From Rhipicephalus microplus (taxonomy: Eukaryota > Arthropoda > Arachnida > Ixodida > Ixodidae), in contig NC_134701.1 in the NCBI RefSeq assembly GCF_043290135.1, forward strand, positions 7,036,001 through 7,100,000: a stretch of DNA of 64,000 nt, in the 5' to 3' direction. Numbering within the stretch: position 1 is the first letter of the stretch; each line of letters begins with the position of its first letter. The translations under genes and the position numbers were made by a program. The notes beneath the pieces were generated by a model, which was given only the letters and a program-made list of their open reading frames with translations, ran no database searches and was not told where the DNA came from. Shown here in pieces: positions 1-64,000 of the stretch.

Positions 1-1
1 T

Positions 2-4161: not shown

Positions 4162-4164
4162 CAG

Positions 4165-4315: not shown

Positions 4316-4350
4316 ATATGTTCTGATGGTGGCAAGAGTAGAGCAGGACT

Positions 4351-4424
4351 GTCTACGTGGCGCAATTGGCTTGCGCGATCGGCTGTTAACCGAAAGGTTG
4401 GAGGTTCGAGCCCACCCGGTGGTG
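4351..4424 (+). pseudogene. first array unit, tRNA-Asn(GTT)-like
   Basis: First complete tRNA-like unit after the LTR element. The anticodon loop CTGTTAA gives GTT at 4385-4387. The acceptor 5' strand is GTCTACG and the D arm reads GGCTTGCGCG instead of GGCTAGCGCG. The acceptor pairs poorly with CGGTGGT at 4417-4423. The T loop TTCGAGC is intact. The same variant unit recurs at 5384 and in later left-array blocks. Confidence 0.75.
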
Positions 4425-4943
4425 GTGCAGCGCTTTTTTTTCTTTGCGCTGAAAGCTTTGAAGATATGTTCTGATGGTGGTGAGAGTGGAGCAAGACTGT
4501 TCTCGTGGCGCAATGAGCTAGCGCGATCGGCTGTTAACCGAAAGGTTGGAGGTTCGAGCCCACCCGGCGGTGGTGCGCCGCATTTTTTTCTGTGGGCTGA
4601 TAGCTTGGAAGATATGTTCTGATGGTGGTGAGAGTAGAGCAGGACTGTCTCCGTGACGCAATTGGCTAGCATGATCGGCTGTTAACCGAAAAGTTGGAGG
4701 TTCGAGCCCACCCGGTGGTGGTGCGGCGCTTTTTTTTCTTTGGGCTGATAGCTTTGAAGATATGTTCTGATGGTGGTGAGAGTAGAGCAGGACTGTCTCC
4801 GTGGCGCAATTGGCTAGCGCGATCGGCTGTTAACCGAAAGGTTGGAGGTTCGAGCCCACCCGGTGAAGGTGTGGCGCTTTTTTTTTCTTTGTGCTGAAAG
4901 CTTTGAAGATATGTTCTGATGGTGGTGAGAGTGGAGCAAGACT

Positions 4944-5017
4944 GTTCTCGTGGCGCAATGAGCTAGCGCGATCGGCTATTAACCGAAAGGTTGGAGTTTC
5001 GAGCCCTCCCGGGAGTG
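4944..5017 (+). pseudogene. tRNA-like unit with ATT in the anticodon position
   Basis: The loop reads CTATTAA, so the anticodon triplet is ATT (4978-4980) instead of GTT. The acceptor begins GTTCTCG and the 3' part is CCCTCCCGGGAGTGG. The T stem GGAGT/CCTCC keeps 51:63 pairing but loses 53:61. ATT units are numerous from 4.9 to 12.7 kb. A34 would normally be edited to inosine, which is not standard for tRNA-Asn, so decoding by this form is unlikely. Confidence 0.65.
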
Positions 5018-5254
5018 GTGTGTTGCTTTTTTCTTTGCGCTGATAGCTTTGAAGATATGTTCTGATGGTGGTGAGAGTGGAGCACCACTGTCCCCGTGGC
5101 GCAATGAGCTAGCGCGATCGGCTATTAACCGAAAGGTTGGAGTTTCGAGCCCTCCCGGGAGTGGTGTGTTGCTTTTTTCTTTGCACTGATAGCTTTGAAG
5201 ATATGTTCCGATGGTGGTGAGAGTGGAGCAGGACTGTCTCCGTGGCGCAATTCG

Positions 5255-8200
5255 CTAGCGCGATTGGCTGTTAACCGAAAAGTTGGAGGTTCGAGCCCAC
5301 CCGGTGGTGGTGCGGCGCTTTTTTTTCTTTGGGCTGATAGCTTTGAAGATATGTTCTGATGGTGGCAAGAGTAGAGCAGGACTGTCTACGTGGCGCAATT
5401 GGCTTGCGCGATCGGCTGTTAACCGAAAGGTTGGAGGTTCGAGCCCACCCGGTGGTGGTGCAGCGCTTTTTTTTCTTTGCGCTGAAAGCTTTGAAGATAT
5501 GTTCTGATGGTGGTGAGAGTGGAGCAAGACTGTTCTCGTGGCGCAATGAGCTAGCGCGATCGGCTGTTAACCGAAAGGTTGGAGGTTCGAGCCCACCCGG
5601 TGGTGGTGCGCCGCATTTTTTTCTGTGGGCTGATAGCTTGGAAGATATGTTCTGATGGTGGTGAGAGTAGAGCAGGACTGTCTCTGTGACGCAATTGGCT
5701 AGCATGATCGGCTGTTAACCGAAAAGTTGGAGGTTCGAGCCCACCCGGTGGTGGTGCGGCGCTTTTTTTTCTTTGGGCTGATAGCTTTGAAGATATGTTC
5801 TGATGGTGGTGAGAGTAGAGCAGGACTGTCTCCGTGGCGCAATTGGCTAGCGCGATCGGCTGTTAACCGAAAGGTTGGAGGTTCGAGCCCACCCGGTGAA
5901 GGTGTGGCGCTTTTTTTTTCTTTGTGCTGATAGCTTTGAAGATATGTTCTGATGGTGGGGAGAGTGGAGCAGGACTGTCTCCGTGGCGCAATTGGCTAGC
6001 GCGATTGGCTGTTAACCGAAAAGTTGGGGGTTCGAGCCCACCCGGTGGTGGTGCGGCGCTTTTTTTTCTTTGTGCTGATAGCTTTGAAGATATGTTCTGA
6101 TGGTGGTGAGAGTGGAGCAGGACTGTCTCCGTGGCGCAATTGGCTAGCGCGATTGGCTGTTAACCGAAAAGTTGGAGGTTCGAGCCCACCCGGTGGTGGT
6201 GCGGCGCTTTTTTTTCTTTGGGCTGATAGCTTTGAAGATATGTTCTGATGGTGGCAAGAGTAGAGCAGGACTGTCTACGTGGCGCAATTGGCTTGCGCGA
6301 TCGGCTGTTAACCGAAAGGTTGGCGGTTCGAGCCCACCCGGTGGTGGTGCAGCGCTTTTTTTTCTTTGCGCTGAAAGCTTTGAAGATATGTTCTGATGGT
6401 GGTGAGAGTGGAGCAAGACTGTTCTCGTGGCGCAATGAGCTAGCGCGATCGGCTATTAACCGAAAGGTTGGAGTTTCGAGCCCTCCCGGGAGTAGTGTGT
6501 TGCTTTTTTCTTTGCGCTGATAGCTTTGAAGATATGTTCTGATGGTGGTGAGAGTGGAGCACCACTGTCCCCGTGGCGCAATGAGCTAGCGCGATCGGCT
6601 ATTAACCGAAAGGTTGGAGATTCGAGCCCACCCGGTGGTGGTGCAGCGCTTTTATTTCTTTGGGCTGATAGCTTTGAAGATATGTTCTGATGGTGGTGAG
6701 AGTGGAGCAGGACTGTCTCCGTGGCGCAATTGGCTAGCGCGATTGGCTGTTAACCGAAAAGTTGGAGGTTCGAGCCCACCCGGTGGTGGTGCGGCGCTTT
6801 TTTTTCTTTGGGCTGATAGCTTTGAAGATATGTTCTGATGGTGGCAAGAGTAGAGCAGGACTGTCTACGTGGCGCAATTGGCTTGCGCGATCGGCTGTTA
6901 ACCGAAAGGTTGGAGGTTCGAGCCCACCCGGTGGTGGTGCAGCGCTTTTTTTTCTTTGCGCTGAAAGCTTTGAAGATATGTTCTGATGGTGGTGAGAGTG
7001 GAGCAAGACTGTTCTCGTGGCGCAATGAGCTAGCGCGATCGGCTGTTAACCGAAAGGTTGGAGGTTCGAGCCCACCCGGCGGTGGTGCGCCGCATTTTTT
7101 TCTGTGGGCTGATAGCTTGGAAGATATGTTCTGATGGTGGTGAGAGTAGAGCAGGACTGTCTCCGTGACGCAATTGGCTAGCATGATCGGCTGTTAACCG
7201 AAAAGTTGGAGGTTCGAGCCCACCCGGTGGTGGTGCGGCGCTTTTTTTTCTTTGGGCTGATAGCTTTGAAGATATGTTCTGATGGTGGTGAGAGTAGAGC
7301 AGGACTGTCTCCGTGGCGCAATTGGCTAGCGCGATCGGCTGTTAACCGAAAGGTTGGAGGTTCGAGCCCACCCGGTGAAGGTGTGGCGCTTTTTTTTTCT
7401 TTGTGCTGATAGCTTTGAAGATATGTTCTGATGGTGGTGAGAGTAGAGCAGGACTCTCTCCGTTGCGCAATCGGCTAGCGTGATCGGCTGTTAACCGAAA
7501 AGTTGGAGGTTCGAGCCCACCCGGTGCTGGTGCGGCGCTTTTTTTTCTTTGGGCTCATAGCTTTGAAGATATGTTCTGATGGTGGTGAGAGTAGAGCAGG
7601 ACTGTCTCCGTGGCGCAATCGGCTAGCGCGATCGGCTGTTAACCGAAAGGTTGGAATTTCGAGCCCTCCCGGGAGTGGTGTGTTGCTTTTTTCTTTGCGG
7701 TAATAGCTTTGAAAATATGTTCTGATGGTGGTGAGAGTGCAGCAGGACTGTCTTCGTGGCACAATTGGCTAGCGCGATCGGCTGGTAACCGAAAGGTTGG
7801 AGGTTCGAGCCCACCCAGTGGTGGTGCGGCGCTTTTTTTTCTTTGCGCTGAAAGCTTTGAAGATATGTTCTGATGGTGGTGAGAGTGGAGCAAGACTGTT
7901 CTCGTGGCGCAATGAGCAAGCGCGATCGGCTATTAACCGAAAGGTTGGAGTTTCGAGCCCTCCCGGGAGTGGTGTGTTGCTTTTTTCTTTGCGCTGATAG
8001 CTTTGAAGATATGTTCTGATGGTGGTGAGAGTGGAGCAAGACTGTTCTCGTGGCGCAATGAGCAAGCGCGATCGGCTATTAACCGAAAGGTTGGAGTTTC
8101 GAGCCCTCCCGGGAGTGGTGTGTTGCTTTTTTCTTTGCGCTGATAGCTTTGAAGATATGTTCTGATGGTGGTGAGAGTGGAGCACGACTGTCCCCGTGGC

Positions 8201-10400
8201 GCAATGAGCTAGCGCGATCGGCTATTAACCGAAAGGTTGGAGTTTCGAGCCCTCCCGGGAGTGGTGTGTTGCTTTTTTCTTTGCGCTGATAGCTTTGAAG
8301 ATATGTTCTGATGGTGGTGAGAGTGGAGCACCACTGTCCCCGTGGCGCAATGAGCTAGCGCGATCGGCTATTAACCGAAAGGTTGGAGATTCGAGCCCAC
8401 CCGGTGGTGGTGCAGCGCTTTTATTTCTTTGGGCTGATAGCTTTGAAGATATGTTCTGATGGTGGTGAGAGTGGAGCAGGACTGTCTCCGTGGCGCAATT
8501 GGCTAGCGCGATTGGCTGTTAACCGAAAAGTTGGAGGTTCGAGCCCACCCGGTGGTGGTGCGGCGCTTTTTTTTCTTTGGGCTGATAGCTTTGAAGATAT
8601 GTTCTGATGGTGGCAAGAGTAGAGCAGGACTGTCTACGTGGCGCAATTGGCTTGCGCGATCGGCTGTTAACCGAAAGGTTGGAGGTTCGAGCCCACCCGG
8701 TTGTGGTGCAGCGCTTTTTTTTCTTTGCGCTGAAAGCTTTGAAGATATGTTCTGATGGTGGTGAGAGTGGAGCAAGACTGTTCTCGTGGCGCAATGAGCT
8801 AGCGCGATCGGCTGTTAACCGAAAGGTTGGAGGTTCGAGCCCACCCGGTGGTGGTGCGCCGCATTTTTTTCTGTGGGCTGATAGCTTGGAAGATATGTTC
8901 TGATGGTGGTGAGAGTAGAGCAGGACTGTCTCCGTGACGCAATTGGCTAGCATGATCGGCTGTTAACCGAAAAGTTGGAGGTTCGAGCCCACCCGGTGGT
9001 GGTGCGGCGCTTTTTTTTCTTTGGGCTGATAGCTTTGAAGATATGTTCTGATGGTGGTGAGAGTAGAGCAGGACTGTCTCCGTGGCGCAATTGGCTAGCG
9101 CGATCGGCTGTTAACCGAAAGGTTGGAGGTTCGAGCCCACCCGGTGAAGGTGTGGCGCTTTTTTTTTCTTTGTGCTGATAGCTTTGAAGATATGTTCTGA
9201 TGGTGGTGAGAGTGGAGCAGGACTGTCTCCGTGGCGCAATTGGCTAGCGCGATTGGCTGTTAACCGAAAAGTTGGAGGTTTGAGCCCACCCGGTGGTGGT
9301 GCGGCGCTTTTTTTTCTTTGTGCTGATAGCTTTGAAGATATGTTCTGATGGTGGTGAGAGTGGAGCAGGACTGTCTCCGTGGCGCAATTGGCTAGCGCGA
9401 TTGGCTGTTAACCGAAAAGTTGGAGGTTCGAGCCCACCCGGTGGTGGTGCGGCGCTTTTTTTTCTTTGGGCTGATTGCTTTGAAGATATGTTCTGATGGT
9501 GGCAAGAGTAGAGCAGGACTGTCTACGTGGCGCAATTGGCTTGCGCGATCGGCTGTTAACCGAAAGGTTGGAGGTTCGAGCCCACCCGGTGGTGGTGCAG
9601 CGCTTTTTTTTCTTTGCGCTGAAAGCTTTGAAGATATGTTCTGATGGTGGTGAGAGTGGAGCAAGACTGTTCTCGTGGCGCAATGAGCAAGCGCGATCGG
9701 CTATTAACCGAAAGGTTGGAGTTTCGAGCCCTCCCGGGAGTGGTGTGTTGCTTTTTTCTTTGCGCTGATAGCTTTGAAGATATGTTCTGATGGTGGTGAG
9801 AGTAGAGCACGACTGTCCCCGTGGCGCAATGAGCTAGCGCGATCGGCTATTAACCGAAAGGTTGGAGTTTCGAGCCCTCCCGGGAGTGGTGTGTTGCTTT
9901 TTTCTTTGCACTGATAGCTTTGAAGATATGTTCCGATGGTGGTGAGAGTGGAGCAGGACTGTCTCCGTGGCGCAATTGGCTAGCGCGATCGGCTGTTAAC
10001 CGAAAGGTTGGAGATTCGAGCCCACCCGGTGGTGGTGCAGCGCTTTTATTTCTTTGGGCTGATAGCTTTGAAGATATGTTCTGATGGTGGTGAGAGTGGA
10101 GCAGGACTGTCTCCGTGGCGCAATTGGCTAGCGCGATTGGCTGTTAACCGAAAAGTTGGAGGTTCGAGCCCACCCGGTGGTGGTGCGGCGCTTTTTTTTC
10201 TTTGGGCTGATAGCTTTGAAGATATGTTCTGATGGTGGCAAGAGTAGAGCAGGACTGTCTACGTGGCGCAATTGGCTTGCGCGATCGGCTGTTAACCGAA
10301 AGGTTGGAGGTTCGAGCCCACCCGGTGGTGGTGCAGCGCTTTTTTTTCTTTGCGCTGAAAGCTTTGAAGATATGTTCTGATGGTGGTGAGAGTGGAGCAA
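5255..10400 (+). repeat. higher-order repeats in the left array
   Basis: A multi-unit block beginning near 5255 recurs near 6734 (offset 1,479 bp, about 10 units) and near 8503 (a further 1,769 bp, about 12 units). Shorter partial copies start near 6144, 9392 and 10128. Diagnostic shared features include the GGTGGCAAGAGTAGAG spacer with GGCTTGCGCG D arm, the GACGCAATTGGCTAGCATG unit, and the GGTGAAGGTG 3' end. The offsets are near multiples of the unit length, so blocks of several units were duplicated together. Confidence 0.85.
7750..7823 (+). pseudogene. tRNA-like unit with GGT (Thr) in the anticodon position
   Basis: The loop CTGGTAA puts GGT at 7784-7786, formally a Thr anticodon in a tRNA-Asn body. 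The acceptor strand is GTCTTCG and the D stem begins GCAC. A relative lies at 13203-13276. Confidence 0.6.
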
Positions 10401-13202
10401 GACTGTTCTCGTGGCGCAATGAGCTAGCGCGATCGGCTGTTAACCGAAAGGTTGGAGGTTCGAGCCCACCCGGTGGTGGTGCGCCGCTTTTTTTCTGTGG
10501 GCTGATAGCTTGGAAGATATGTTCTGATGGTGGTGAGAGTAGAGCAGGACTGTCTCCGTGACGCAATTGGCTAGCGTGATCGGCTGTTAACCGAAAAGTT
10601 GGAGGTTCGAGCCCACCCGGTGGTGGTGCGGCGCTTTTTTTTCTTTGGGCTGATAGCTTTGAAGATATGTTCTGATGGTGGTGAGAGCAGAGCAGGACTG
10701 TCTCCGTGGCGCAATTGGCTAGCGCGATCGGCTGTCAACCGAAAAGTTGGAGTTTCGAGCCCTCCCGTGAGTGGTGTGTTGCTTTTTTCTTTGCGCTGAT
10801 AGCTTTGAAGATATGTTCTGATGGTGGTGAGAGTGGAGCACGACTGTCTTCGTGGCGCAGTTGGCTAGCGCGATCGGCTGTTAACCGAAAGGTTGGAGGT
10901 TCGAGCCCACCCGGTGATGGTGTGGCGCTTTTTTTTCTTTGTGCTGATAGCTTTGAAGATATGTTCTGATGGTGGTGAGAGTGGAGCAGGACTGTCTCCG
11001 TTGTGCAATTGGCTAGCGCGATTGGCTGTTAACCGAAAGGTTGGAGGTTCGAGCCCATCCGGTGGTGGTGCGGTGCTTTTCTTTCTTTGGGCTGATAGCT
11101 TTGAAGATATGTTCTGATCGTGGTGAGAGTGGAGCAGGACTGTCTCTGTGGCGCAATTGGCTTGCGCGATCGGCTGTTAACCGAAAAGTTGGAGGTTCGA
11201 GCCCACCCGGTGGTGGTGCGGCGCTTTTTTTTCTTTGCGCTGATAGCTTTGAAGATATGTTCTGATGGTGGTGAGAGTGGAGCAAGACTATCCCCGTGGC
11301 GCAATGGGCAAGCGCGATCGGCTGTTAACCGAAACGTTGGAGTTTCGAGCCCACCCGGTGGTGATGCGGCGCTTTTATTTCTTTGCGCTGATAGTTTGAA
11401 GATATGTTCTGATGCTGGTGAGAGTAGAGAAAGACTGTCTCCGTGGCGCAATAGGCTAGCGCGATCGGCTGTTAACCGAAAGGTTGGAATTTCGAGCCCT
11501 CCCGGCAGTGGTGTGTTGCTTTTTTCTTTGCGGTAATAGCTTTGAAAATATGTTCTGATGGTGGTGAGAGTGCAGCAAGACTGTCTCCGTGGCGCAATGG
11601 GCTAGCGCGATCGGCTGTTAACCGAAAGGTTGTAGTTTTGAGCCCTCCTCGGAGTGGTGTGTTGCTTTTTTCTTTGTGGTAATAGCTTTGAAGATATGTT
11701 CTGATGGTGGTGAGAGTGGAGCAGGACTGTCTCCATGGCGCAATTGGCTAGCGCGATTGGCTGTTAACCGAAAGGTTGGAGTTTCGAGCCCACCCGGTGG
11801 TGGTGCGGCGCTTTTTTTTTCTTTGGGCTGATAGCTCTGAAGAAATGTTCTGACGGTGGTGAGAGTTGAGCAGGACTGTCTCCGTGGCGCAATTGGCTAG
11901 CGCGATCGGCTATTAACCGAAAAGTTGGAGGTTCGAGCCCACCCGGTAATGGTGCGGCGCTTTTTTTTTCTTTGGGGCGATAGCTCTGAAGAAATGGTCT
12001 GACGGTGGTGAGAGTGGCGCACGATTGTCTCGGTGGCGCAGTTGGCTAGCGCGATCGGCTGTTAACCGAAAGGTTGGAGGTTCGAGCCCACCCGGTGATG
12101 GTGTAGCGCTTTTTTTTCTTTGTGCTGATAGCTTTGAAGATATGTTCTGATGGTGGTGAGAGTGGAGCAGGACTGTCTCCGTGGCGCAATTGGCTAGCGC
12201 GATTGGCTGTTAACCGAAAAGTTGGAGGTTCGAGCCCACCCGGTGGTGGTGCGGCGCTTTTTTTTCTTTGGGCTGATAGCTTTGAAGATATGTTCTGATG
12301 GTGGCGAGAGTAGAGCAGGACTGTCTTCGTGGCGCAATTGGCTAGTGCGATCGGCTGTTAACCGAAAGGTTGGAGGTTCGAGCCCACCCGGTGGTGGTGC
12401 AGCGCTTTTTTTTCTTTGCGCTGAAAGCTTTGAAGATATGTTCTGATGGTGGTGAGAGTGGAGCAAGACTGTCCTCGTGGCGCATTGAGCTAGCGCGATC
12501 GGCTATTGACCGAAAGGTTGGAGTTTCGAGCCCTCCCGGGAGTGGTGTGTTGCTTTTTTTTGCGCTGATAGCTTTGAAGATATGTTCTGATGGTGGTGAG
12601 AGTGGAGCACGACTGTCCCCGTGGCGCAATGAGCTAGCGCGATCGGCTATTAACCGAAAGGTTGGAGTTTCGAGCCCTCCCGGGAGTGGTGTGTTGCTTT
12701 TTTCTTTGCACTGATAGCTTTGAAGATATGTTCCGATGGTGGTGAGAGTGGAGCAAGACTGTCTCCGTGGCGCAATTGGCTAGCGCGATCGGCTGTTAAC
12801 CGAAAGGTTGGAGATTCGAGCCCACCCGGTGGTGGTGCAGCGCTTTTATTTCTTTTGGGCTGATAGCTTTGAAGATATGTTCTGATGGTGGTGAGAGTGG
12901 AGCAGGACTGTCTCCGTGGCACAATCGGCTAGCGCGATCGGCTGTTAACCGAAAGGTTGGAGGTTCGAGCCCACCCGGTGGTGGTGCGCCGCTTTTTTTC
13001 TGTGGGCTGATAGCTTGGAAGATATGTTCTGATGGTGGTGAGAGTAGAGCAGGACTGTCTCCGTGACGCAATTGGCTAGCGTAATCGGCTGTTAACCGAA
13101 AGGTTGGAAATTCGAGCCCTCCCGGCAGTGGTGTGTTGCTTTTTTCTTTGCGGTAATAGCTTTGAAAATATGTTCTGATGGTGGTGAGAGTGCAGCAGGA
13201 CT

Positions 13203-13276
13203 GTCTTCGTGGCGCAATTGGCTAGCGCGATCGGCTGGTAACCGAAAGGTTGGAGGTTCGAGCCCACCCAGTGGTG
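13203..13276 (+). pseudogene. second tRNA-like unit with GGT (Thr) anticodon triplet
   Basis: The anticodon triplet GGT is at 13237-13239. The D stem here is GCGC, unlike GCAC in its relative at 7750, and the 3' part CCACCCAGTGGTGG is shared. The two are members of one subtype carried in different blocks. Confidence 0.6.
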
Positions 13277-14674
13277 GTGCGGCGCTTTTTTTTCTTTGGG
13301 GTGATAGCTCTGAAGAAATGTTCTGACGGTGGTGAGAGTGGAGCACGACTGTCTCCGTGGGGCAATGGGCTAGCGCGATCGGCTGTTAACCGAAAGGTGG
13401 GAGGTTCGAGCTCTCCCGGTGGTGGTGCGGCGCTTTTTTTCTGTGGGCTGATAGCTTTGAAGATATGTTCTGATGGTGGTGAGAGTAGAGCAGGACTCTC
13501 TCCGTTGCGCAATCGGCTAGCGTGATCGGCTGTTAACCGAAAAGTTGGAGGTTCGAGCCCACCCGGTGCTGGTGCGGCGCTTTTTTTTCTTTGGGCTCAT
13601 AGCTTTGAAGATATGTTCTGATGGTGGTGAGAGTAGAGCAGGACTGTCTCCGTGGCGCAATCGGCTAGCGCGATCGGCTGTTAACCGAAAGGTTGGAGTT
13701 TCGAGCCCTCCCGGGAGTGGTGTGTTGCTTTTTTCTTTGCGCTGATAGCTTTGAAGATATGGTCTGATGGTGGTGAGAGTGGAGCACGACTGTCTCCGTG
13801 GCGCAGTTGGCTAGCGCGATCGGCTGTTAACCGAAAGGTTGGAGGTTCGAGCCCACCCAGTGATGGTGTGGCGCTTTTTTTTCTTTGTGCTGATAGCTTT
13901 GAAGATATGTTCTGATGGTGGTGAGAGTGGAGCAGGACTGTCTCTGTGGCGCAATTGGCTAGCGCGATTGGCTGTTAACCGAAAGGTTGGAGGTTCGAGC
14001 CTACCCGGTGGTGGTGCGGTGCTTTTTTTTCTTTGGGCTGTTAGCTTTGAAGATATGTTCTGAAAGTGGTGAGAGTGGAGCAAGACTGTCCCCGTGGCGC
14101 AATGGGCTAGCGCGATCGCCTGTAAACCGAAAGGTTGGAGTTTCGAGCTCTCCCGGAAGTGGTGTGTTGCTTTTTTCTTTGCACTGACAGCTTTGAAGAT
14201 ATGTTCTGATGGTGGTGAGAGTGCAGCTGGACTGTCTCCGTGGCGCAATCGGCTAGAGCGATCGGCTGTTAAACGAAAGGTTGGAGGTTCGAGCCCACCC
14301 GGTGGTGGTGCGGCGCTTTTTTTCCTTTGCGCTAATAGCTTTGAAGATATGTCATGATGGTGTTGAGAGTGGAGCAAGACTGTCTCCGTGGCGCAATGGG
14401 CTAGCGCGATCGGCTGTTAACCGAAAGGTTGGAGTTTCGAGCCCTCCCGGGAGTGGTGTGTTGCTTTTTTCTTTGTGGTAATAGCTTTGAAGATATGTTC
14501 TGATGGTGGTGAGAGTGGAGCAGGACTGTCTCCTTGGCGCAATTGGCTAGCGCGATCGCCTGTTAACCGAAAGGTTGGAGGTTCGAGCCCACCCGGTGGT
14601 GGTGCGGCGCTTTTTTTCTTTGGGCTGATAGCTTTGAAGATATAATCTGATGGTGGTGAGAGTAGAGCAGGACT

Positions 14675-14748
14675 GTCTCCGTGGCGCAATTGGCTAGCGC
14701 GATCGGCTTTTAACCGAAAGGTTGGAGGTTCCAGCCCACCCGGTGGTG
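14675..14748 (+). pseudogene. tRNA-like unit with TTT (Lys) in the anticodon position
   Basis: The loop CTTTTAA gives TTT at 14709-14711, formally a Lys anticodon. The T loop is TTCCAGC (G57 to C), further evidence of decay. I saw this anticodon only once. Confidence 0.55.
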
Positions 14749-15273
14749 GTGCGACGCTTTTTTTTTTCTTTGGGGCGATAGCTCTGAAGAAATGGTCTGA
14801 CGGTGGTGAGAGTGGAGCACGATTGTCTCGGTGGCGCAGTTGGCTAGCGCGATCGGCTGTTAACCGAAAGGTTGGAGGTTCGAGCCCACCCGGTGATGGT
14901 GTGGCGCTTTTTTTTCTTTGTGCTGATAGCTTTGAAGATATGTTCTGATGATGGTTAGAGTGGAGCAGGACTGTCTCCGTGGCGCAATTGGCTAGCGCGA
15001 TCGGCTGTAAACCGAAAGTTTGGAGTTTCGAGCTCTCCCGGGAGTGGTGTGTTGCTTTTTTCTTTGCACTGACAGCTTTGAAGATATGTTCTGATGGTGG
15101 TGAGAGTGGAGCAGGACTGTCTCCGTGGCGCTATTGGCTAGCGCGATCGGCTGTTAACCGAAAGGTTGGAGGTTCGAGCCCACCCGGTGGTGGTGCGGCG
15201 CTTTTTTTTCTTTGCGCTAATAGCTTTGAAGATATGTCCTGATGGTGTTGAGAGTGGAGCAAGACTGTCTCCG

Positions 15274-15286
15274 TGGCGCAATTGGC
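15274..15286 (+). promoter_or_regulatory. A box (internal Pol III promoter) of a representative unit
   Basis: TGGCGCAATTGGC fits the eukaryotic A-box pattern (TGGCNNAGTGG-like, with the invariant GG). Most units keep this. Subtypes with GGCTATGCG or GGCTATTCG lose a base just 3' of it. Confidence 0.6.
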
Positions 15287-15318
15287 TAGCGCGATCGGCT
15301 GTTAACCGAAAGGTTGGA

Positions 15319-15329
15319 GGTTCGAGCCC
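15319..15329 (+). promoter_or_regulatory. B box (internal Pol III promoter) of a representative unit
   Basis: GGTTCGAGCCC is the B-box form found in genuine eukaryotic tRNA-Asn genes. In the TACGAGC units the fourth base is A, which removes a key TFIIIC contact. Confidence 0.65.
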
Positions 15330-15349
15330 ACCCGGTGGTGGTGTGGCGC

Positions 15350-15358
15350 TTTTTTTTT
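15350..15358 (+). terminator. Pol III terminator-like T-run of a representative unit
   Basis: Nine consecutive T follow the tRNA-like 3' end by about ten bases. Nearly every unit has 6-9 T here, usually followed by CTTTGGGCTGATAG, or else a TTTTTTATTTTGG form. Four or more T suffice for animal Pol III, so each unit carries its own potential stop. Confidence 0.6.
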
Positions 15359-50704: not shown

Positions 50705-50763
50705 TACTGTTACCCCGCATTGCATTGTTTACTTCCTGATATTCTTTTGATACTCGTCTTAAC

Positions 50764-53607: not shown

Positions 53608-53843
53608 TAATGTGATCTAGCGACTACCTCGGTGATCTTTCATTGTAATCTTTCATTGTTTCTTTTTTTAGTGCACATTGTGAAACACTTTTATTTTGGT
53701 TGTCCTTAGCCGCACGTCTTTCTGTGCTACCCTGTGTACTAGGGGGTCAGGGCTTCTCAAGCTGTTCTCACAGCTTTTACCTGCCCTCCTCGTAACATGT
53801 ATTTTGTTGTTGCGGAATAAATTTCAATTTCAATTTCAATTTC
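53608..53843 (+). other. LINE 3' UTR with AATAAA and (TTTCAA)n tail
   Basis: Non-coding 236 bases. AATAAA is at 53816-53821. Four TTTCAA repeats (53822-53845, the last overlapping the target duplication by AA) end the element, a simple-repeat tail instead of poly(A). I see no other gene. Confidence 0.8.
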
Positions 53844-53849
53844 AAGATA
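53844..53849. repeat. target-site duplication, right copy (AAGATA)
   Basis: The array resumes with AAGATATGTTCTG. The leading AA could also belong to the TTTCAA tail, so the certain duplication is GATA and the likely one AAGATA. Confidence 0.75.
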
Positions 53850-53899
53850 TGTTCTGATGGTGGTGAGAGTGGAGCACGACTGTCTCCGTGGCGCAATTG

Positions 53900-56800
53900 G
53901 CTAGCGCGATCAGCTGTTAACCGAAAGGTTAGAGGTACGAGCCCACCCGCTGGTGGTGCGGCGCTTTTTTACCTTTGGGCTGATAGCTCTGAATAAATGT
54001 TCTGACGCTGGTGAGAGTGGAGCACGACTGTCTCCGTGGCGCATTAGGCTAGCGCGATCGGCTGTTAACCGAAAGGTTGAAGGTTCGAGCCCTCCCGGGA
54101 GTGGTGTAATGCTTTTTTTATTTTGGGCTGATGGCTTTGAAAATATGTTTTGATGGTGGTGAGTGTGGAGCAGGACTGTCTCCGTGGCACAATTGGCTAG
54201 CGCGTCGGCTGTTAACCGAAAGGTTGGAGGTACGAGCCTACCCGGTGGAGGTGCGGCGCTTTTTTTTCTTTGGGCTGATAGCTGTGAAGATATGTTCTGA
54301 TGGTGGTGAGAGTGGAGCACGACTGTCTCCGTGGCGCAATTGGCTAGCGCGATCGGCTGTGAACCGAGAGGTTGGAAGTTGGAGCCCACCCGGTGGTGGT
54401 GCGGCGATTTTTTTCCTTTTGGCTGATAGCTCTGAATAAATGTTCTGATGGTGGTGAGAGTGGAGCATGACTGTCTCCATGGCGCAATTGGCTATGCGAT
54501 TGGCTGTCAACTGAAAGGTTGGAGGTTCGAGTCGCGCGGGAGTGGTGTATTGCTTTTTTTTTCTTTGGGCTGATAGCTTTGAAGATATTTTCTGATGGTG
54601 GTGAGAGTGGAGCACGACTGTCCCCGTGGCGCAATTGGCTAGCGCGATCGACTAATAACCGAGAGGTTGGAGGTTCGAGCCCACCCGGTGGTGGTGCGGC
54701 GATTTTTTTCCTTAGGGCTGATAGCTCTGAAGAAATGTTCTGACGGTGATGAGAGTGGAGCATGACTGTCTCCATGGCGCAATTGGCTATGCGATCGGCT
54801 GTTAACTGAAAGGTTGGAGGCTCGAGCCCTCGCGGGAGTGGTGTGTTGCTTTTTTTCGGGGCTGATAGCTTTGAAGATATGTTCTGATGGTGGTGAGAGT
54901 GGAGCAGGACTGTCTCCGTGGCGTAATTGGCTAACGCGATCGGCTGTTAACCGAAAGGTTTGAGGTTCGGGCCCTCCTGGTGGTGGTGCGGCGCTTTTTC
55001 TCTTTGGGCTGATAGCTTTGAAGATATGTTCTGATGGTGGTGAGAGTGGAGCACGACTGTCTCCGTGGCGCAATTGGCTAGCGCGATCGGCTGTTAACCG
55101 AAAGGTTGGAGGTACGAGCCCACCCGGTGGTGGTGCGGTGCTTTCTTTTTTTTGGGCTGATAGCTTTGAAGATATGTTGTGATGGTGGTGAGAGTGGAGC
55201 AGGACTGTCTTCGTGGCGCAATCGGCTAACGCGATCGGCTGTTAACCGAAAGGTTGGAGGTACGAGCCCTCCCGGGAGCGGTGTGTTGCTTTTTTTATTT
55301 TGGGCTTATAGCTTTGAAGATATGTTCTGATGGTTTTGAGAGTGGAGCACGACTGTCTCCATGGCGCAATTGGCTAGCGCGATCGGCTGTTAACCGAAAG
55401 ATTGGAGGTACGAGCCCACCCGGTGGTGGTGCGGCGCTTTTTTTCTTTGGGCTGATAGCTTTGAAGATATGTTCTGATGGTGTTGAGAGTGGAGCAGGAC
55501 TGTCTCCGTGGCGCAATGGGCTAGCGCGATTGGCTGTTAACCGAAAGGTTGGAGGTACGAGCCCACCCGGTGGTGGTGCGGCGCTTGTTTTTCTTTGGGC
55601 TGATAGCTTTGAAGATATGTTCTGATGGTGGTGAGAGTGGAGCACGACTGTCTCCGTGGCGCAATTGGCTAGCGCGATCAGCTGTTAACCGAAAGGTTAG
55701 AGGTACGAGCCCAACCGGTGGTGGTGCGGTGCTTTTTTTTCTTTGGGCTGATAGCTCTGAAGAAATGTTCTGACGGTGGTGTGAGTGGAGCACGACTGTC
55801 TCCGTGCCGCAATTGGCTAGCGCGATCGGCTGTTAACCGAAAGGTTGGAGGTTCGAGCCCTCCCGGGAGTGGTGTGTTGCTTTTTTTATTTTGGGTTGAT
55901 AGCTTTGAAAATATGTTCTGATGGTGGTGAGTGTGGAGCAGGACTGTCTCCGTGGCGCAATTGGCTAGCGCGATCGGCCGTAAACCGAAAGGTTGGAGGT
56001 ACGAGCCTACCCGGTGGAGCTGCGGCGCTTTTTTTTCTTTGGGCTGATAGCTTTGAAGATATGTTCTGATGGTGGTGAGAGTGGAGCACGACTGTCTCCG
56101 TGGCGCAATTGGCTAGCGCGATCAGCTGTTAATCGAAAGGTTGGAGGTACGAGCCCACCCGGTGGTGGTGCGGCGCTTTTTTTTCTTTGGGCTGATAGCT
56201 TTGAAGATATGTTCTGATGGTGGTGAGAGTGGAGCAGGACTGTCTCTGTGGCGCCATCGGCTAACACGATCGGCTGTTAACCGAAAGGTTGGAGGTACGA
56301 GCCCACCCGGTGGTGGTGCGGCGCTTTTTTTTCTTTGGGCTGATAGCTTTGAAGATATGTTCTGATGGTGGTGAGAGTGGAGCACGACTGTCTCCGTGGC
56401 GCAATTGGCTAGCGCGATCGGCTGTTAACCGAAAGGTTGGAGGTACGAGCCTACCCGGTGGAGGTGCAGCGCTTTTTTTTCTTTGGGCTGATAGCTTTGA
56501 AGATATGTTCTGATGGTGGTGAGAGTGGAGCACGACTGTCTCCGTGGCGCAATCGGCTAACGCGATCGGCTGTTAACCGAAAGGTTGGAGGTACGAGCAA
56601 TCCCGGGAGTGGTGTGTTGCTTTTTTTATTTTGGGCTGATAGCTTTGAAGATATGTTCTGATGGTGGTGATAGTGGAGCACGACTGTCTCCGTGGCGCAA
56701 TTGGCTAGCGCGATCGGCTGTTAACCGAAAGGTTGGAGGTACGAGCCCACCCGGTGGTGGTGCGGCGCTTTTTTTTCTTTGGGCAGATAGCTTTGAAGAT

Positions 56801-59800
56801 ATGTTCTGATGGAGGTGAGAGTGGAGCAGGACTGTCTCCGTGGCGCAATGGGCTGGCGCGATCGGCTGTTAACCGAAAGGTTGGAGGTACGAGCCCACCC
56901 GGTGGTGGTGCGGCGCATGTTTTTCTTTGGGCTGATAGCTTTGAAGATATGTTCTGATGGTGGTGAGAGTGGAGCACGACTGTCTCCGTGGCGCAATTGG
57001 CTAGCGCGATCAGCTGTTAACCGAAAGGTTAGAGGTACGAGCCCACCCGCTGGTGGTGCGGCGCTTTTTTATCTTTGGGCTGATAGCTCTGAAGAAATGT
57101 TCTGACGGTGGTGTGAGTGGAGCACGACTGTCTCCGTGGCGCAATAGGCTAGCGCGATCGGCTGTTAACCGAAAGGTTGAAGGTTCGAGCCCTCCCGGGA
57201 GTGGTGTAATGCTTTTTTTATTTTGGGCTGATGGCTTTGAAAATATGTTGTGATTGTGGTGAGTGTGGAGCAGGACTGTCTCCGTGGCACAATTGGCTAG
57301 CGCGATCGGCTGTTAACCGAAAGGTTGGAGGTACGAGCCTACCCGGTGGAGGTGCGGCGCTTTTTTTTCTTTGGGCTGATAGCTTTGAAGATATGTTCTG
57401 ATGGTGGTGAGAGTGGAGCACGACTGTCTCCGTGGCGCAATTGGCTAGCGCGATCGGCTGTTAACCGAGAGGTTGGAAGTTGGAGCCCACCCGGTGGTGG
57501 TGCGGCGATTTTTTTCCTTTTGGCTGATAGCTCTGAATAAATGTTCTGATGGTGGTGAGAGTGGAGCATGACTGTCTCCATGGCGCAATTGGCTATGCGA
57601 TCGGCTGTCAACTGAAAGGTTGGAGGTTCGAGTCGCGCGGGAGTGGTGTATTGCTTTTTTTTCTTTGGGCTGATAGCTTTGAAGATATGTTCTGATGGTG
57701 GTGAGAGTGGAGCACGACTGTCCCCGTGGCGCAATTGGCTAGCGCGATCGACTAATAACCGAGAGGTTGGAGGTTCGAGCCCACCCGGTGGTGGTGCCGC
57801 GATTTTTTTCCTTAGGGCTGATAGCTCTGAAGAAATGTTCTGATGGTGATGAGAGTGGAGCATGACTGTCTCCATGGCGCAATTGGCTATGCGATCGGCT
57901 GTTAACTGAAAGGTTGGAGGCTCAAGCCCTCGCGGGAGTGGTGTGTTGCTTTTTTTCGGGGCTGATAGCTTTGAAGATATGTTCTGATGGTGGTGAGAGT
58001 GGAGCAGGACTGTCTCCGTGGCGTAATTGGCTAGCGCGATCGGCTGTTAACCGAAAGGTTTGAGGTTCGGGCCCTCCTGGTGGTGGTGCGGCGCTTTTTC
58101 TCTTTGGGCTGATAGCTTTGAAGATATGTTCCGATGGTGGTGAGAGTGGAGCACGACTGTCTCCGTGGCGCAATTGGCTAGCGCGATCGGCTGTTAACCG
58201 AAAGGTTGGAGGTACGAGCCCACCCGGTGGTGGTGCGGTGCTTTCTTTTCTTAGGGCTGATAGCTTTGAAGATATGTTGTGATGGCGGTGAGAGTGGAGC
58301 AGGACTGTCTCCGTGGCGCAATCGGCTAACGCGATCGGCTGTTAACCGAAAGGTTGGAGGTACGAGCCCTCCCGGGAGCGGTGTGTTGCTTTTTTTATTT
58401 TGGGCTTATAGCTTTGAAGATATGTTCTGATGGTTTTGAGAGTGGAGCACGACTGTCTCCATGGCGCAATTGGCTAGCGCGATCGGCTGTTAACCGAAAG
58501 ATTGGAGGTACGAGCCCACCCGGTGGTGGTGCGGCGCTTTTTTTCTTTGGGCTGATAGCTTTGAAGATATGTTCTGATGGTGTTGAGAGTGGAGCAGGAC
58601 TGTCTCCGTGGCGCAATGGGCTAGCGCGATTGGCTGTTAACCGAAAGGTTGGAGGTACGAGCCCACCCGGTGGTGGTGCGGCGCTTGTTTTTCTTTGGGC
58701 TGATAGCTTTGAAGATATGTTCTGATGGTGGTGAGAGTGGAGCACGACTGTCTCCGTGGCGCAATTGGCTAGCGCGATCAGCTGTTAACCGAAAGGTTAG
58801 AGGTACGAGCCCAACCGGTGGTGGTGCGGTGCTTTTTTTTCTTTGGGCTGATAGCTCTGAAGAAATGTTCTGACGGTGGTGTGAGTGGAGCACGACTGTC
58901 TCCGTGCCGCAATTGGCTAGCGCGATCGGCTGTTAACCGAAAGGTTGGAGGTTCGAGCCCTCCCGGGAGTGGTGTGTTGCTTTTTTTATTTTGGGTTGAT
59001 AGCTTTGAAAATATGTTCTGATGGTGGTGAGTGTGGAGCAGGACTGTCTCCGTGGCGCAATTGGCTAGCGCGATCGGCTGTAAACCGAAAGGTTGGAGGT
59101 ACGAGCCTACCCGGTGGAGGTGCGGCGCTTTTTTTTCTTTGGGCTGATAGCTTTGAAGATATGTTCTGATGGTGGTGAGAGTGGAGCACGACTGTCTCCG
59201 TGGCGCAATTGGCTAGCGCGATCAGCTGTTAATCGAAAGGTTGGAGGTACGAGCCCACCCGGTGGTGGTGCGGTGCTTTTTTTTCTTTGGGCTGATAGCT
59301 TTGAAGATATGTTCTGATGGTGGTGAGAGTGGAGCAGGACTGTCTCCGTGGCGCAATCGGCTAACACGATCGGCTGTTAACCGAAAGGTTGGAGGTACGA
59401 GCCTTCCCGGGAGTGGTGTGTTGCTTTTTTTTATTTTGGGCTGATAGCTTTGAAGATATGTTCTGATGGTGGTGAGAGTGGAGCACGACTGTCTCCGTGG
59501 CGCAATTGGCTAGCGCGATCGGCTGTTAACCGAAAGGTTGGAGGTACGAGCCCACCTGGTGGTGGTGCGGCTCTTTTTTTCTTTGGGCTGATAGCTTTGA
59601 AGATATGTTCTGATGGTGGTGAGAGTGGAGCACGACTGTCGTCTCCATGGCGCAATTGGCTATTCGATTGGCTGTTAACTGAAAGGTTTGAGGTTCGAGC
59701 CCTTCCGGGAATGGTGTGTTGCTTTTTTTATTTTGGGCTGATAGCTTTGAAAATATGTAATGATGGTGGTGAGAGTGGAGCACGACTGTCTCTGTGGCGC

Positions 59801-61580
59801 AATTGGCTAGCGCGATCGGCTGTTAACCGAAAGGTTGGAGGTACGAGCCCACCCGGTGGTGGTGCGGCGCTTTTTTTTCTTTGGGCTGATAGCTTTGAAG
59901 ATATGTTCTGATGGTGGTGAGAGTGGAGCAGGAATGTCTCCGTGGCGCAATGGGCTGGCGCGATCGGCTGTTAACCGAAAGGTTGGAGGTACGAGCCCAC
60001 CCGTTGGTGGTGCGGCGCTTGTTTTTCTTTGGGCTGATAGCTTTGAAGATATGTTCTGATGGTGGTGAGAGTGGAGCACGACTGTCTCCGTGGCGCAATT
60101 GGCTAGCGCGATCAGCTGTTAACCGAAAGGTTAGAGGTACGAGCCCACCGGCTGGTGGTGCGGCGCTTTTTTATCTTTGGGCTGATAGCTCTGAAGAAAT
60201 GCTCTGACGGTGGTGTGAGTGGAGCACGACTGTCTCCGTGGCGCAATAGGCTAGCGCGATCGGCTGTTAACCGAAAGGTTGAAGGTTCGAGCCCTCCCAG
60301 GAGTGGTGTAATGCTTTTTTTATTTTGGGCTGATGGCTTTGAAAATATGTTGTGATGGTGGTGAGTGTGGAGCAGGACTGTCTCCGTGGCACAATTGGCT
60401 AGCGCGATCGGCTGTTAACCGAAAGGTTGGAGGTACGAGCCTACCCGGTGGAGGTGCGGCGCTTTTTTTTCTTTGGACTGATAGCTTTGAAGATATGTTC
60501 TGATGGTGGTGAGAGTGGAGCATGACTGTCTCCGTGGCGCAATTGGCTAGCGCGATCGCCTGTTAACCGAGAGGTTGGAAGTTGGAGCCCACCCGGTGGT
60601 GGTGCGGCGATTTTTTCCTTTTGGCTGATAGCTCTGAATAAATGTTCTGATGGTGGTGAGAGTGGAGCATGACTGTCTCCATGGCGCAATTGGCTATGCG
60701 ATCGGCTGTCAACTGAAAGGTTGGAGGTTCGAGTCGCGCGGGAGTGGTGTATTGCTTTTTTTTCTTTGGGCTGATAGCTTTGAAGATATCTTCTGATGGT
60801 GGTGAGAGTGGAGCACGACTGTCTCCGTGGCGCAATTGGCTAGCGCGATCGACTAATAACCGAGAAGTTGGAGGTTCGAGCCCACCCGGTGGTGGTGCGG
60901 CGATTTTTTTCCTTAGGGCTGATAGCTCTGAAGAAATGTTCTGACGGTGGTGAGAGTGAAGCATGACTGTCTCCATGGCGCAATTGGCTATGCGATCGGC
61001 TGTTAACTGAAAGGTTGGAGGCTCGAGCCCTCGCGGGAGTGGTGTGTTGCTTTTTTTCGGGGCTGATAGCTCTAAAGATATGTTCTGATGGTGGTGAGAG
61101 TGGAGCAGGACTGTCTCCGTGGCGTAATTGGCTAGCGCTATCGGCTGTTAACCGAAAGGTTTGAGGTTCGGGCCCTCCTGGTGGTGGTGCGGCGCTTTTT
61201 CTCTTTGGGCTGATAGCTTTGAAGATATGTTCTGATGGTGGTGAGAGTGGAGCACGACTGTCTCCGTGGCGCAATTGGCTAGCGCGATCGGCTGTTAACC
61301 GAAAGGTTGGAGGTACGAGCCCACCCGGTGGCGGTGCGGTGCTTTCTTTTCTTTGGGCTGATAGCTTTGAAGATATGTTCTGATGGTGGTGAGAGTGGAG
61401 CAGGACTGTCTCCGTGGCGCAATCGGCTAACGCGATCGGCTGTTAACCGAAAGGTTGGAGGTACGAGCCCTCCCGGGAGCGGTGTGTTGCTTTTTTTATT
61501 TTGGGCTTATAGCTTTGAAGATATGTTCTGATGGTTTTGAGAGTGGAGCACGACTGTCTCCATGGCGCAATTGGCTAGCG
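53900..61580 (+). repeat. three tandem copies of a ~3,100-bp higher-order repeat (21 units)
   Basis: Units at 55106, 58206 and 61307 match, as do 55254, 58354 and 61455, with offsets of 3,100-3,101; 57053 and 60155 are 3,102 apart. The copies share GTAATTGGCTAGCGCG with CGGGCCCTCCTGG and the CCCGGGAGCGG signature. Copies differ inside, for example 56.2-56.7 kb versus 59.35-59.8 kb. The middle copy also matches the array left of the LINE (48294 versus 56437, offset 8,143 = 3,100 + 5,043), so the LINE lies within one member of this series. Homology fades after about 61.7 kb. Confidence 0.87.
56944..56949. other. unoccupied paralog of the LINE insertion site
   Basis: AAGATA here is flanked by the same units that flank the LINE, offset 3,100 from 53844. 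With 42744-42749 it shows the pre-insertion sequence directly. Confidence 0.8.
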
Positions 61581-63469
61581 CTATCGGCTGTTAACCGAAA
61601 GATTGGAGGTACGAGCCCACCTGGTGGTGGTGCGGCGCTTTTTTTTCTTTGGGCTGATAGCTTTGAAGATATGTTCTGATGGTGGTGAGAGTGGAGCACG
61701 ACTGTCTCCGTGGCGCAATCGGCTAGCGCGATCGGCTGTTAACCGAAAGGTTGGAGGTACGAGCCCACGAAGTGGTGGTGCGGCGCTTTTTTTTCTTTGG
61801 GCTGATAGCTTTGAAGAAATGTTCTGGCGGTGGTGAGAGTGGAGCACGACTGTCTCCGTAGCGCAATTGGCTATGCGAAAGGCTGTTAACCGGAAGGTTG
61901 GAGGTTCGAGCCCTCCCAGGAGTGGTGTGTTGCTTTTTTTTCTTTGGGCTGATAGCCTTGAAGAAATGTTCTGATGGTGGTGAGAGTGGAGCAGGACTGT
62001 CTCCGTGGCGCAATTGGCTAGCGCGATCGGCTGTTAACCGAAAGGTTGGAGGTACGAGCCCACCCGGTGGTGGTGCGGCGCTTTTATTCTTTGGGCTGAT
62101 AGCTCTGAAGAAATGTTCTGACGGTGGTGAGAGTGGAGCACGACTGTCTCCGTGGCGCATTTGGCTAGCCCGATCGGCTGTTAACCGAAAGGTTCGAGGT
62201 ACGAGCCCTCCCAGGAGTGGTGTGTTGCTTTTTATTCTTTGGGCTGATAGCTTTGAAGATATGTTCTGATGGTGGTGAGAGTGGAGCAGGACTGTCTCCA
62301 TGGCGCAATTGGCTAACGCGATCGGCTGTTAACCGAAAGGTTGGAGCTACGAGCCCTCCCGGGAGTGGTGTGATGCTTTTTTTATTTCGGGCTGATAGCT
62401 ATGAAGATATGTTGTGATGGTGGTGAGAGTGGAGCAGGACTGTCTCCGTGGCGCAATTGGCTAGGGCGATCGGCTGTTAACCGAAAGGTTTGAGGTTCGG
62501 GCCCACCAGGTGGTGGTGCGGCGCTTTCTTTTCTTTGGGCTGATAGCTTTGAAGATATGTTCTGATGGTGGTGAGAGTGTAGCACGACTGTCTCCGTGGC
62601 GCAATAGGCTAGCGCGATCGGCTGTTAACCGAAAGGTTGGAGGTTTGAGCCCTCCCGGGAGTGGTGTGTTGTTTTTTTTATTTTGGGCTGATAGCTTTGA
62701 AGATATGTTCTGGTGGTGGTGAGTGTGGAGCAGGACTGTCTCCGTGGCGCAATTGGCTAGCGCGATCGGCTGTTAACCGAAAGGTTGGACGTACGAGCCC
62801 TCCTGGGAGTGGTGCGCTGCTTTTTTTTGGGCTGATAGCTTTGAAGATATGTTCTCATGGTGGTGAGAGTGGAGCACGACTATCTCCGTGGCGCTATTGG
62901 CTAGTGCGATCAGCTGTTAACCGAAAGGTTGGAGGTTCGAGCCCACCCGGTGGTGGTGCGATCTTTTTTTTTCTTTGGGCTGATAGCTTTGAAGATGTGT
63001 TCTGATGGTGGTAAGAGTGGAGCACGACTGTCTCCGTGGCGCAATTGGCTAGCGCTATCGGCTGTTAACTAAAAGGTTGGAGGTTCGGGCCCACCTGGTG
63101 GCGGTGCGGCGCTTTTTTTCTTTGGGCAGATAGCTTTGAAGATATGTTCTGATGGTGGTGAGAGTGGAGCACGACTGTCTCCGTGGCGCAATTGGCTAGT
63201 GCGATCGGCTGTTAACCGAGAGGTTGGAGGTTGGAGCCCACCCGGTGGTGGTGCGGCGATTTTTTTCCTTTTGGCTGATAGCTCTGAAGAAATGTTCTGA
63301 CGGTGGTGAGAGTGGAGCACGACTGTCTCTATGGCGCAATTGGCTATGCGATCGGCTGTTAACCGAAAGGTTGGAGGTAGAGCCCACCCGGTTTAGGTGC
63401 GGCGCTTTTTTTCTTTAGGCTGATAGCTTTGAAGATATGTTCTGATGGTGGTGAGAGTGGAGCACGACT

Positions 63470-63543
63470 GTCTCCGTGGCGCAATTGGCTAGCGCGATCG
63501 GCTGTTAACCGAAAGGTTGGAGGTTCGAGCCCACCCGGTGGTG
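63470..63543 (+). tRNA. consensus-like tRNA-Asn(GTT) unit near the right end, TTC type
   Basis: Same sequence as the clean unit at 15267: GTCTCCG acceptor, GTT anticodon at 63504-63506, TTCGAGC T loop, CGGTGGT 3' strand. It keeps both internal promoter boxes and is followed by TTTTTT after the GCGGCGC stretch. The 27:43 and 51:63 mismatches remain, so function is uncertain. Confidence 0.55.
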
Positions 63544-64000
63544 GTGCGGCGCTTTTTTGTCTTTGGGCTGATAGCTCTGAAGAAATCTTCTGACGGTGGT
63601 GAGAGTGGAGCACGACTGTCTTCGTGGCGCAATTGGCTATGCGATCGGCTGTTAACTCAAAGGTTGGAGGTTCGAGCCCTCCCGGGAGTGGTGTGTTGCT
63701 TTTTTTTCTTTGGGCTGATAGCTTTGAAAATATGTTCTGATGGTGGTGAGTGTGGAGCAGGACTGTCTCCGTGACGCAATTGGCTAGCGCGATCGGCTGT
63801 TAACCGAAAGGTTGGAGGTACGAGCCCACCCGGTGGAGGTGCGGCGCTTTTTTTTTCTTTGGATTGATAGCTTTGAAGATATGTTCTGTTGGTGGTGAGA
63901 GTGGAGCACGACTGTCTCCGTGGCGCAATCGGCTAGCGCGATCGGCTGTTAACCGAGAGGTTGGAGGTTCGAGCCCACCCGGTAGCGGTGCGGCGAATTT

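What the first reader, a model, noticed from the sequence alone, without database searches (positions are those of the whole stretch)
4316..64000. A ~370-unit tandem array built from one tRNA (Asn)
The sequence shows one orientation, one isoacceptor body, a ~148-bp period, internal A/B boxes and a T-run per unit over about 55 kb. Large tRNA arrays are known (for example in Entamoeba, with mixed tRNAs), but a monotypic tRNA-Asn satellite with higher-order structure in an animal is unusual. It could be a decayed gene cluster, a new class of tRNA-derived satellite, or a Pol III-bound chromatin domain.
Basis: partly seen in the sequence, partly recalled or inferred. Interest (0 to 1): 0.85.

Follow-up and report, generated by a model that had tools for sequence, protein, structure and literature searches.

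The report
Tick satellite DNA from tRNA-Asn gene
A tick genome carries hundreds of thousands of head-to-tail copies of a worn-out asparagine tRNA gene as satellite DNA, a clear case of an ordinary housekeeping gene turning into bulk repeat DNA.

Summary
The array is real: 370 same-strand units of ~148 bp (4316-64000), interrupted by a LINE at 48804-53846. ARAGORN tRNAs there (213 Asn), against 0 in 10 shuffles. The window is a slice of something far larger. It is C2:7.04-7.10 Mb of a Rhipicephalus tick genome; the C2 array runs from about 5.11 to at least 9.87 Mb, and word counts imply very roughly 0.4-0.9 million units genome-wide. The units do not look like working tRNA genes: 0 of 1,266 aligned units has all 21 cloverleaf pairs, and the best of those scored reach 47-50 bits in Rfam against 68-70 for two dispersed tRNA-Asn genes. 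The tRNA half is not significantly better conserved than the spacer. Best explanation: a satellite grown by tandem amplification of a tRNA-Asn gene with its flanks. Most B boxes genome-wide look intact, so Pol III/TFIIIC binding stays open. It may be the published ~149-bp subtelomeric repeat RMR-1 (recalled; sequence not available). tRNA-like satellites are already known in amphibians.

The parts
4316..48803 (+). first stretch of the tRNA-Asn-derived 148-bp tandem array in the window
   Evidence: TRF; segmentation; unit ends at the LINE
53847..64000 (+). second stretch of the same array, running off the window
4351..4424 (+). tRNA-Asn-like body of the first unit (anticodon GTT at 4385-4387)
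   Evidence: Rfam RF00005 36.6 bits; ARAGORN; sequence
4358..4369 (+). A-box-like stretch TGGCGCAATTGG of the first unit
   Evidence: sequence; box consensus recalled
4403..4413 (+). B-box-like stretch GGTTCGAGCCC of the first unit (intact form)
   Evidence: sequence; box consensus recalled
4434..4441 (+). T-run (Pol III-type terminator) of the first unit
   Evidence: sequence; 367 of 367 aligned units have at least 4 T here
48804..53846 (+). LINE inserted in the array: 5' 163-bp tandem repeats (48808-49365), ORF1 49799-50704, ORF2 50764-53607 with endonuclease and reverse transcriptase, (AATTTC)n end
1..4315 (+). 3' part of a Ty3/gypsy-like element inserted in the array: long pol frame 676-4092, 3' LTR 4165-4315
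   Evidence: ORF (naming from its motifs, no family search of it was run); LTRs 151 bp and 100% identical

Best explanation
A satellite DNA whose 148-bp unit is a tRNA-Asn gene with about 35 bp of 5' and 39 bp of 3' flank, T-run included. A tRNA-Asn gene was duplicated head to tail (inferred). Unequal exchange and duplication of multi-unit blocks grew it into megabase arrays (block duplications shown; the exchange mechanism inferred). Arrays lie in the outer megabases of chromosomes C2, C3 and C4, beside other satellites and telomere-repeat-rich DNA, at some interior places and on unplaced contigs (shown). The units no longer make tRNA-Asn, which dispersed intact genes can supply (inferred from stem decay and scores; expression not tested). 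What the array does is most likely what other bulk satellites near chromosome ends do: passive, heterochromatic, structural DNA (inferred from class and place). Its Pol III boxes look like inherited relics kept by homogenisation, not by selection on the boxes.
For: Unit layout: 35 bp spacer, 74-bp tRNA body, 39 bp with the T-run about 10 bp after the body. Locus consensus bodies match the dispersed C8:10.75 Mb tRNA-Asn gene at 66-69 of 74 positions. 0 of 1,266 units fully paired, mean 4.04 mispairs; two dispersed genes have 0 mispairs; observed pairing equals that of shuffled columns (4.03 +/- 0.008), so no covariation. Scores: best unit 46.9 bits of 94 hits in 4200-20000 and 49.7 in the C8:125 Mb array, against 69.6 and 67.7 for the dispersed genes. 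Mean divergence of tRNA body and spacer alike, p 0.91. A disabling-looking B-box change sits in about half of the window's units and is as common as the intact form in the C2 samples. Block duplications. Eleven of eleven C2 samples between 5.5 and 9.5 Mb are array; exact words number 109,890, 167,925 and 179,671 with 0 in reversed-pattern controls.
Against: Genome-wide the intact B-box word far outnumbers the broken one (167,925 against 12,284), which selection could also produce. Rare variants are somewhat fewer in the tRNA body than in the spacer (2.42 per site, difference -0.72, p 0.21), and A+B boxes outside C2 come close to being better kept than spacer (p 0.09). No chromatin, RNA or read data could be examined, so silence and heterochromatin are inferred. 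CpG sites show more C>T than other C (mean 0.121 against 0.031; Mann-Whitney p 0.0002 for C>T and G>A together), but CpG is not depleted (obs/exp 1.01), so methylation is neither shown nor excluded.
Confidence: 0.82

Rival explanations
1. Pol III/TFIIIC platform: the arrays bind TFIIIC through more than 100,000 intact B boxes and act as boundary, clustering site or transcribed chromatin domain near chromosome ends.
For: Exact intact B-box word 167,925 times against 12,284 for the broken form; A-box pattern in 1,043 of 1,266 units, T-run in 1,262, A box + strict B box + T-run together in 392.
Against: No significant excess conservation of the boxes in four subsets of units; about half of the window's B boxes are changed. 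Binding itself untested.
Confidence: 0.1
2. Centromeric or pericentromeric satellite of one-armed chromosomes: a ~148-bp, nucleosome-sized unit in megabase arrays near one end. Compatible with the tRNA origin.
For: Array in the outer 10 Mb of C2 and C4 and outer 4-5 Mb of C3, beside other satellites; two samples 3 and 8 Mb from the other end of C2 are not array.
Against: Interior arrays at C4:175 and 180 Mb, C8:125 Mb and C9:116 Mb; C1 had no place in capped lists of the spacer words, which start on C2; telomere-rich DNA and other satellites are equal candidates. I recall that R. microplus was proposed to be holocentric.
Confidence: 0.15
3. Satellite derived from a tRNA-type SINE rather than directly from a tRNA gene.
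For: SINE-derived satellites are documented in reptiles (passages of PMC10702118); a tRNA-Ser-like SINE, Ruka, is reported in Rhipicephalus (passage of PMC3160391).
Against: The unit is a whole tRNA body with gene-like flanks and terminator, with no SINE body or LINE-type tail seen in it; its closest relatives here are tRNA-Asn genes. Solo dispersed copies of the spacer were not searched for specifically.
Confidence: 0.06
4. Working tRNA-Asn gene cluster that meets a high demand for the tRNA.
For: GTT anticodon in 1,130 of 1,266 units and G73 in 95%; a preprint reports large tRNA numbers in ticks (passages of PMC13105059).
Against: 0 of 1,266 units fully paired; scores about 20 bits below dispersed genes for those scored; body no better kept than spacer.
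Confidence: 0.03
5. Assembly artefact: the array is inflated or collapsed by the assembler.
For: Tandem arrays are hard to assemble; read depth could not be checked.
Against: Arrays on many contigs with different mixtures of units; 267 distinct units among 367; insertions flanked by units on both sides. Copy number may still be off.
Confidence: 0.02

Closest known systems
RMR-1, ~149-bp tandem repeat of Rhipicephalus microplus (Hill et al. 2009, PMID 19221885; content recalled; paper not held, seen only as a reference entry or citation)
   Same: As recalled: same species or genus, same unit length, subtelomeric on most autosomes by FISH.
   Different: Sequence not available to compare; I do not recall whether its tRNA origin was noted. 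If identical, the repeat is known and only its origin, scale and structure are added here.
tRNA-like tandem repeats of amphibians: Rana/polIII (~250 nt, up to 10% of some genomes), PolIII/TAN of Cynops (~360 nt), OAX or satellite I of Xenopus, Hy/polIII of Hydromantes (passages of PMC10702118)
   Same: Abundant tandem repeat with a tRNA-related stretch.
   Different: There the tRNA likeness is partial or disputed (64% over 64 nt in Rana) and units are longer; here the unit is a whole tRNA-Asn gene with flanks, 66-69 of 74 positions like a dispersed gene.
tRNA gene arrays and clusters of eukaryotes (Entamoeba, zebrafish, stickleback, Nematostella; passages of PMC2888827)
   Same: Tandem, mostly parallel tDNAs.
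   Different: Those are mixed or far fewer (for example over 17,000 tRNA genes and pseudogenes in Nematostella; 45,225 in bushbaby with 5.6% clustered); this is one tRNA type at 10^5-10^6 copies and without intact cloverleaves in the units examined.
tRNA gene expansion in ticks (preprint PMC13105059; passages)
   Same: Reports 20-30-fold more tRNA genes in ticks than in other Acari and insects.
   Different: Described as uniform across isotypes, after a score cut of 50 and a filter against tRNA-derived repeats, which would hide an array like this.

Membership tests
satellite DNA | long head-to-tail array of similar units | tested here: met
   370 units in the window; eleven of eleven C2 samples between 5.5 and 9.5 Mb
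satellite DNA | concerted evolution: units homogenised, recent block duplications | tested here: met
   29-unit block at 99.7%; identity within and between places alike
satellite DNA | place in subtelomeric or pericentromeric heterochromatin | tested here: inconclusive
   outer megabases of C2, C3, C4 beside other satellites, but also interior arrays; chromatin state not testable
functional tRNA-Asn gene family | complete cloverleaf pairing | tested here: not met
   0 of 1,266 units with 21 of 21 pairs; two dispersed genes have all
functional tRNA-Asn gene family | tRNA body under stronger constraint than spacer | tested here: not met
   divergence p 0.91; rare variants p 0.21
functional tRNA-Asn gene family | transcription and aminoacylation | not testable with these tools
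   no RNA data
Pol III-type internal promoter unit | A box, B box and T-run together | tested here: inconclusive
   392 of 1,266 units have all three by strict B box, 1,091 of the 1,266 from C2; the intact B-box word dominates genome-wide
SINE-derived satellite | unit carries SINE body or LINE-derived tail, with dispersed SINE relatives | tested here: inconclusive
   no such part seen in the unit; dispersed spacer relatives not searched for specifically
RMR-1 of R. microplus | sequence identity to the published repeat | not testable with these tools
   paper and sequence not held
centromeric satellite | CENP-A or kinetochore association | not testable with these tools
   no chromatin data

The most novel reading that the evidence does not exclude
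The arrays are an active TFIIIC/Pol III domain: well over 100,000 intact B boxes, many near chromosome ends, recruit TFIIIC and perhaps Pol III and form a boundary, clustering domain or sink for the factor, on a scale beyond any tDNA array I know of.
Probability: 0.1. Interest if true: 0.85.

Novelty: new member of a known kind. Interest (0 to 1): 0.5.

Why it matters
It is a clean case of a housekeeping tRNA gene turned into megabase satellite DNA. Intact dispersed genes, an apparently older diverged array (C8:125 Mb) and the main arrays lie in one genome, so the path from gene to satellite could be ordered. It warns that raw tRNA counts in tick genomes need filtering, and it offers a natural test of what more than 10^5 Pol III boxes do to chromatin.

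Tried and rejected
A single regular higher-order repeat: block duplications occur at many offsets (41, 252, 57, 21, 16, 10 units), not one period; a first BLAST attempt at this printed nothing.

Selection on the tRNA or its boxes: not detected, with the near-misses told in the Against line. Methylation decay: C>T at CpG is raised (mean 0.121 against 0.031; about 0.065 without the two most extreme sites) but CpG is not depleted: undecided.

Presence in other ticks, through mispredicted proteins of the array: 7 weak hits, none named; uninformative. A rule that arrays read inward from the nearer telomere: C2, C3 and C4 samples fit, but C9:136.27 Mb (+, near the right end) does not, and one C3 place at 289.18 Mb is +.

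Gypsy targeting of Pol III genes: 7 elements sit at the same unit site in the same orientation among 398 exact LTR ends, but their target duplication ATAT occurs only once in the unit consensus, so a plain ATAT preference or copying along with the array explains it; the opposite orientation was not tested.

Papers: searches. No title or abstract start listed there is about a tRNA-Asn satellite in ticks. Limits: listings were capped, most subscription papers are not held, and Hill et al. 2009 could not be read. Eight papers were seen as passages only.
Full report
Observation. The array is in the sequence as described. TRF reports one 148-bp array from 4316 to 63995; segmentation gives 370 units, 231 of 369 spacings exactly 148. 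ARAGORN tRNAs, all on the + strand, 213 of them Asn, and none in 10 dinucleotide shuffles. In 4200-20000 the only Rfam family reaching its gathering score is RF00005, with 94 hits over about 106 whole units. Unit order is not random: 81 runs of 5 or more units recur at >=96.5% identity, the longest 29 units at 99.7%, against a longest run of 4 in 50 shuffles of unit order.

Where it lies. The window is C2:7036001-7100000 of a 3.26-Gb genome of 1,202 contigs. Of the 18 contigs whose lengths I saw (C1-C17, C79), eleven exceed 100 Mb. The LINE ORF1 in the window is 100% identical over its length to a protein named from Rhipicephalus microplus, so this is R. microplus or a near relative. Position 4316 is not where the array starts: a Ty3/gypsy-like element with identical 151-bp LTRs and an ATAT target duplication sits in the array, and units continue on its far side. 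A LINE with endonuclease and reverse transcriptase occupies 48804-53846.

Scale. Of twenty 10-kb samples of C2, the eleven between 5.5 and 9.5 Mb are 93-100% array on the + strand; the six at 0-5 Mb and the three at 10, 12 and 15 Mb hold none. The first words on C2 lie at about 5.11 Mb and + core words continue to 9.87 Mb, with one on the - strand at 10.02 Mb. Of 60 further 400-base spot samples, 4 are array (C3 3 Mb from its right end, C12 once, C13 twice); C12, C13 and C16 were sampled because one search had hits there. Of 16 contig starts none is array, but 4 of them are only N. Four places chosen from hits (C4 twice, C16, C79) are all array. Exact words: spacer 40-mer 109,890, intact B-box 18-mer 167,925, spacer 29-mer 179,671, with 0 matches to the reversed patterns. 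Per-unit rates measured on 1,103 unit-equivalents from C2 and 238 from elsewhere turn these into about 0.40-0.88 million units, or 59-130 Mb. The rates differ from place to place, so this is rough; the 29-mer count alone gives a floor of about 180,000 units (about 27 Mb). All of this is as assembled; read depth was not available.

Neighbours. On C2, toward the end, lie a 193-bp satellite and telomere-repeat-rich (TAACC) DNA, and on the inner side a 130-bp satellite. C4 shows the same series toward its right end: 193-bp at 240 Mb, telomere-rich at 235 Mb, array at 234 Mb. Interior arrays exist at C4:175 and 180 Mb, C8:125 Mb and C9:116 Mb (the last from one 151-base stretch).

What the unit is. 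Each unit is 35 bp of 5' spacer, a 74-bp tRNA-Asn-like body and 39 bp of 3' spacer with a T-run about 10 bp after the body. Two dispersed genes with unrelated flanks, at C8:10.75 Mb and C1:249.48 Mb, have perfect stems and score 69.6 and 67.7 bits; a further close match at C293:72511 was not examined. Units score at most 46.9 bits in the window stretch and 49.7 in the C8:125 Mb array; other arrays were not scored. Locus consensus bodies match the C8 gene at 66-69 of 74 positions. For the pair counts, 1,357 matches were found; two overlapping loci (42 matches) and 49 partial matches were dropped, leaving 1,266 units, 1,091 of them from C2. None is fully paired; three pairs (4-69, 27-43, 51-63) fail in most units; stem columns pair no better than shuffled columns.

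Selection. Mean divergence of the tRNA body and of the spacer is alike (p 0.91); rare variants are somewhat fewer in the body (p 0.21). A and B boxes are not significantly better kept than spacer in any of four subsets, the closest being A+B outside C2 with p 0.09. The B-box change GGTTCGA to GGTACGA is in about half of the window's units; in the C2 samples the two 18-mers are equally common (211 and 223), elsewhere 67 and 20, and genome-wide 167,925 against 12,284. Within the window the first 77 units all have T there, and then A and T mix. The spread of the change on C2 argues against strong selection there; elsewhere the question is open.

History. Units from different places are about as similar as units within one place (mostly 85-92%), except the C8:125 Mb array, which is 80-82% from the rest, only 82.6% within itself, and keeps T at position 27 like the dispersed genes. 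I read it as an older layer (inference).

How it most likely works. Tandem duplication of a tRNA-Asn gene, then growth by unequal exchange and block duplication; tRNA function lost; bulk satellite DNA, probably heterochromatic. Shown: unit anatomy, decay of the cloverleaf, block duplication, scale, places. Inferred: mechanism of growth, silence, chromatin state. The rival that matters most is a TFIIIC/Pol III platform, because intact B boxes still number well over 100,000.

Comparison. tRNA-like tandem satellites are known in amphibians (passages of PMC10702118), and tDNA clusters are common (passages of PMC2888827). A 2026 preprint reports many tRNA genes in ticks after filtering out tRNA-derived repeats (passages of PMC13105059). 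From memory, Hill et al. 2009 described RMR-1, a ~149-bp subtelomeric repeat of R. microplus; the sequence could not be compared. I file this as a new member of a known kind; its origin from a whole tRNA gene, its purity and its scale are the interesting parts.

Noticed in passing
window 1-4315; C2:7034867-7040315: Ty3/gypsy-like element inserted in the array, LTRs 151 bp and 100% identical (a young insertion), target duplication ATAT; 7 copies genome-wide sit at this same unit site in this orientation, among 398 exact LTR ends.
   Followed up: partly
window 48804-53846: LINE with both frames open, 5' end made of 163-bp tandem repeats and an (AATTTC)n 3' end, inserted at nearly the same spacer spot of the unit as the gypsy element.
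   Followed up: partly
L016 6438-7150 and L020 7261-7973 (C2 about 6.006 and 7.257 Mb): A 713-bp insert with the same junctions in the T-run of a unit at two places 1.25 Mb apart, which suggests that array blocks are copied over megabase distances.
   Followed up: no
window 4316 to about 15700: The first 77 units all carry T at unit position 91 (B box); beyond them A and T mix: a sharp domain boundary inside the array.
   Followed up: no
C2:1-5 Mb and C2:10 Mb (L009-L014, L026): Other satellites beside the array: 193-bp, telomere-repeat-rich blocks with TAACC runs spaced about 1.3 kb, and 130-bp; they recur on C4 and C13.
   Followed up: no
C8:125.05-125.12 Mb (L111-L115): A diverged, interior version of the tRNA-Asn array that keeps more of the gene's bases, perhaps an older layer.
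   Followed up: partly
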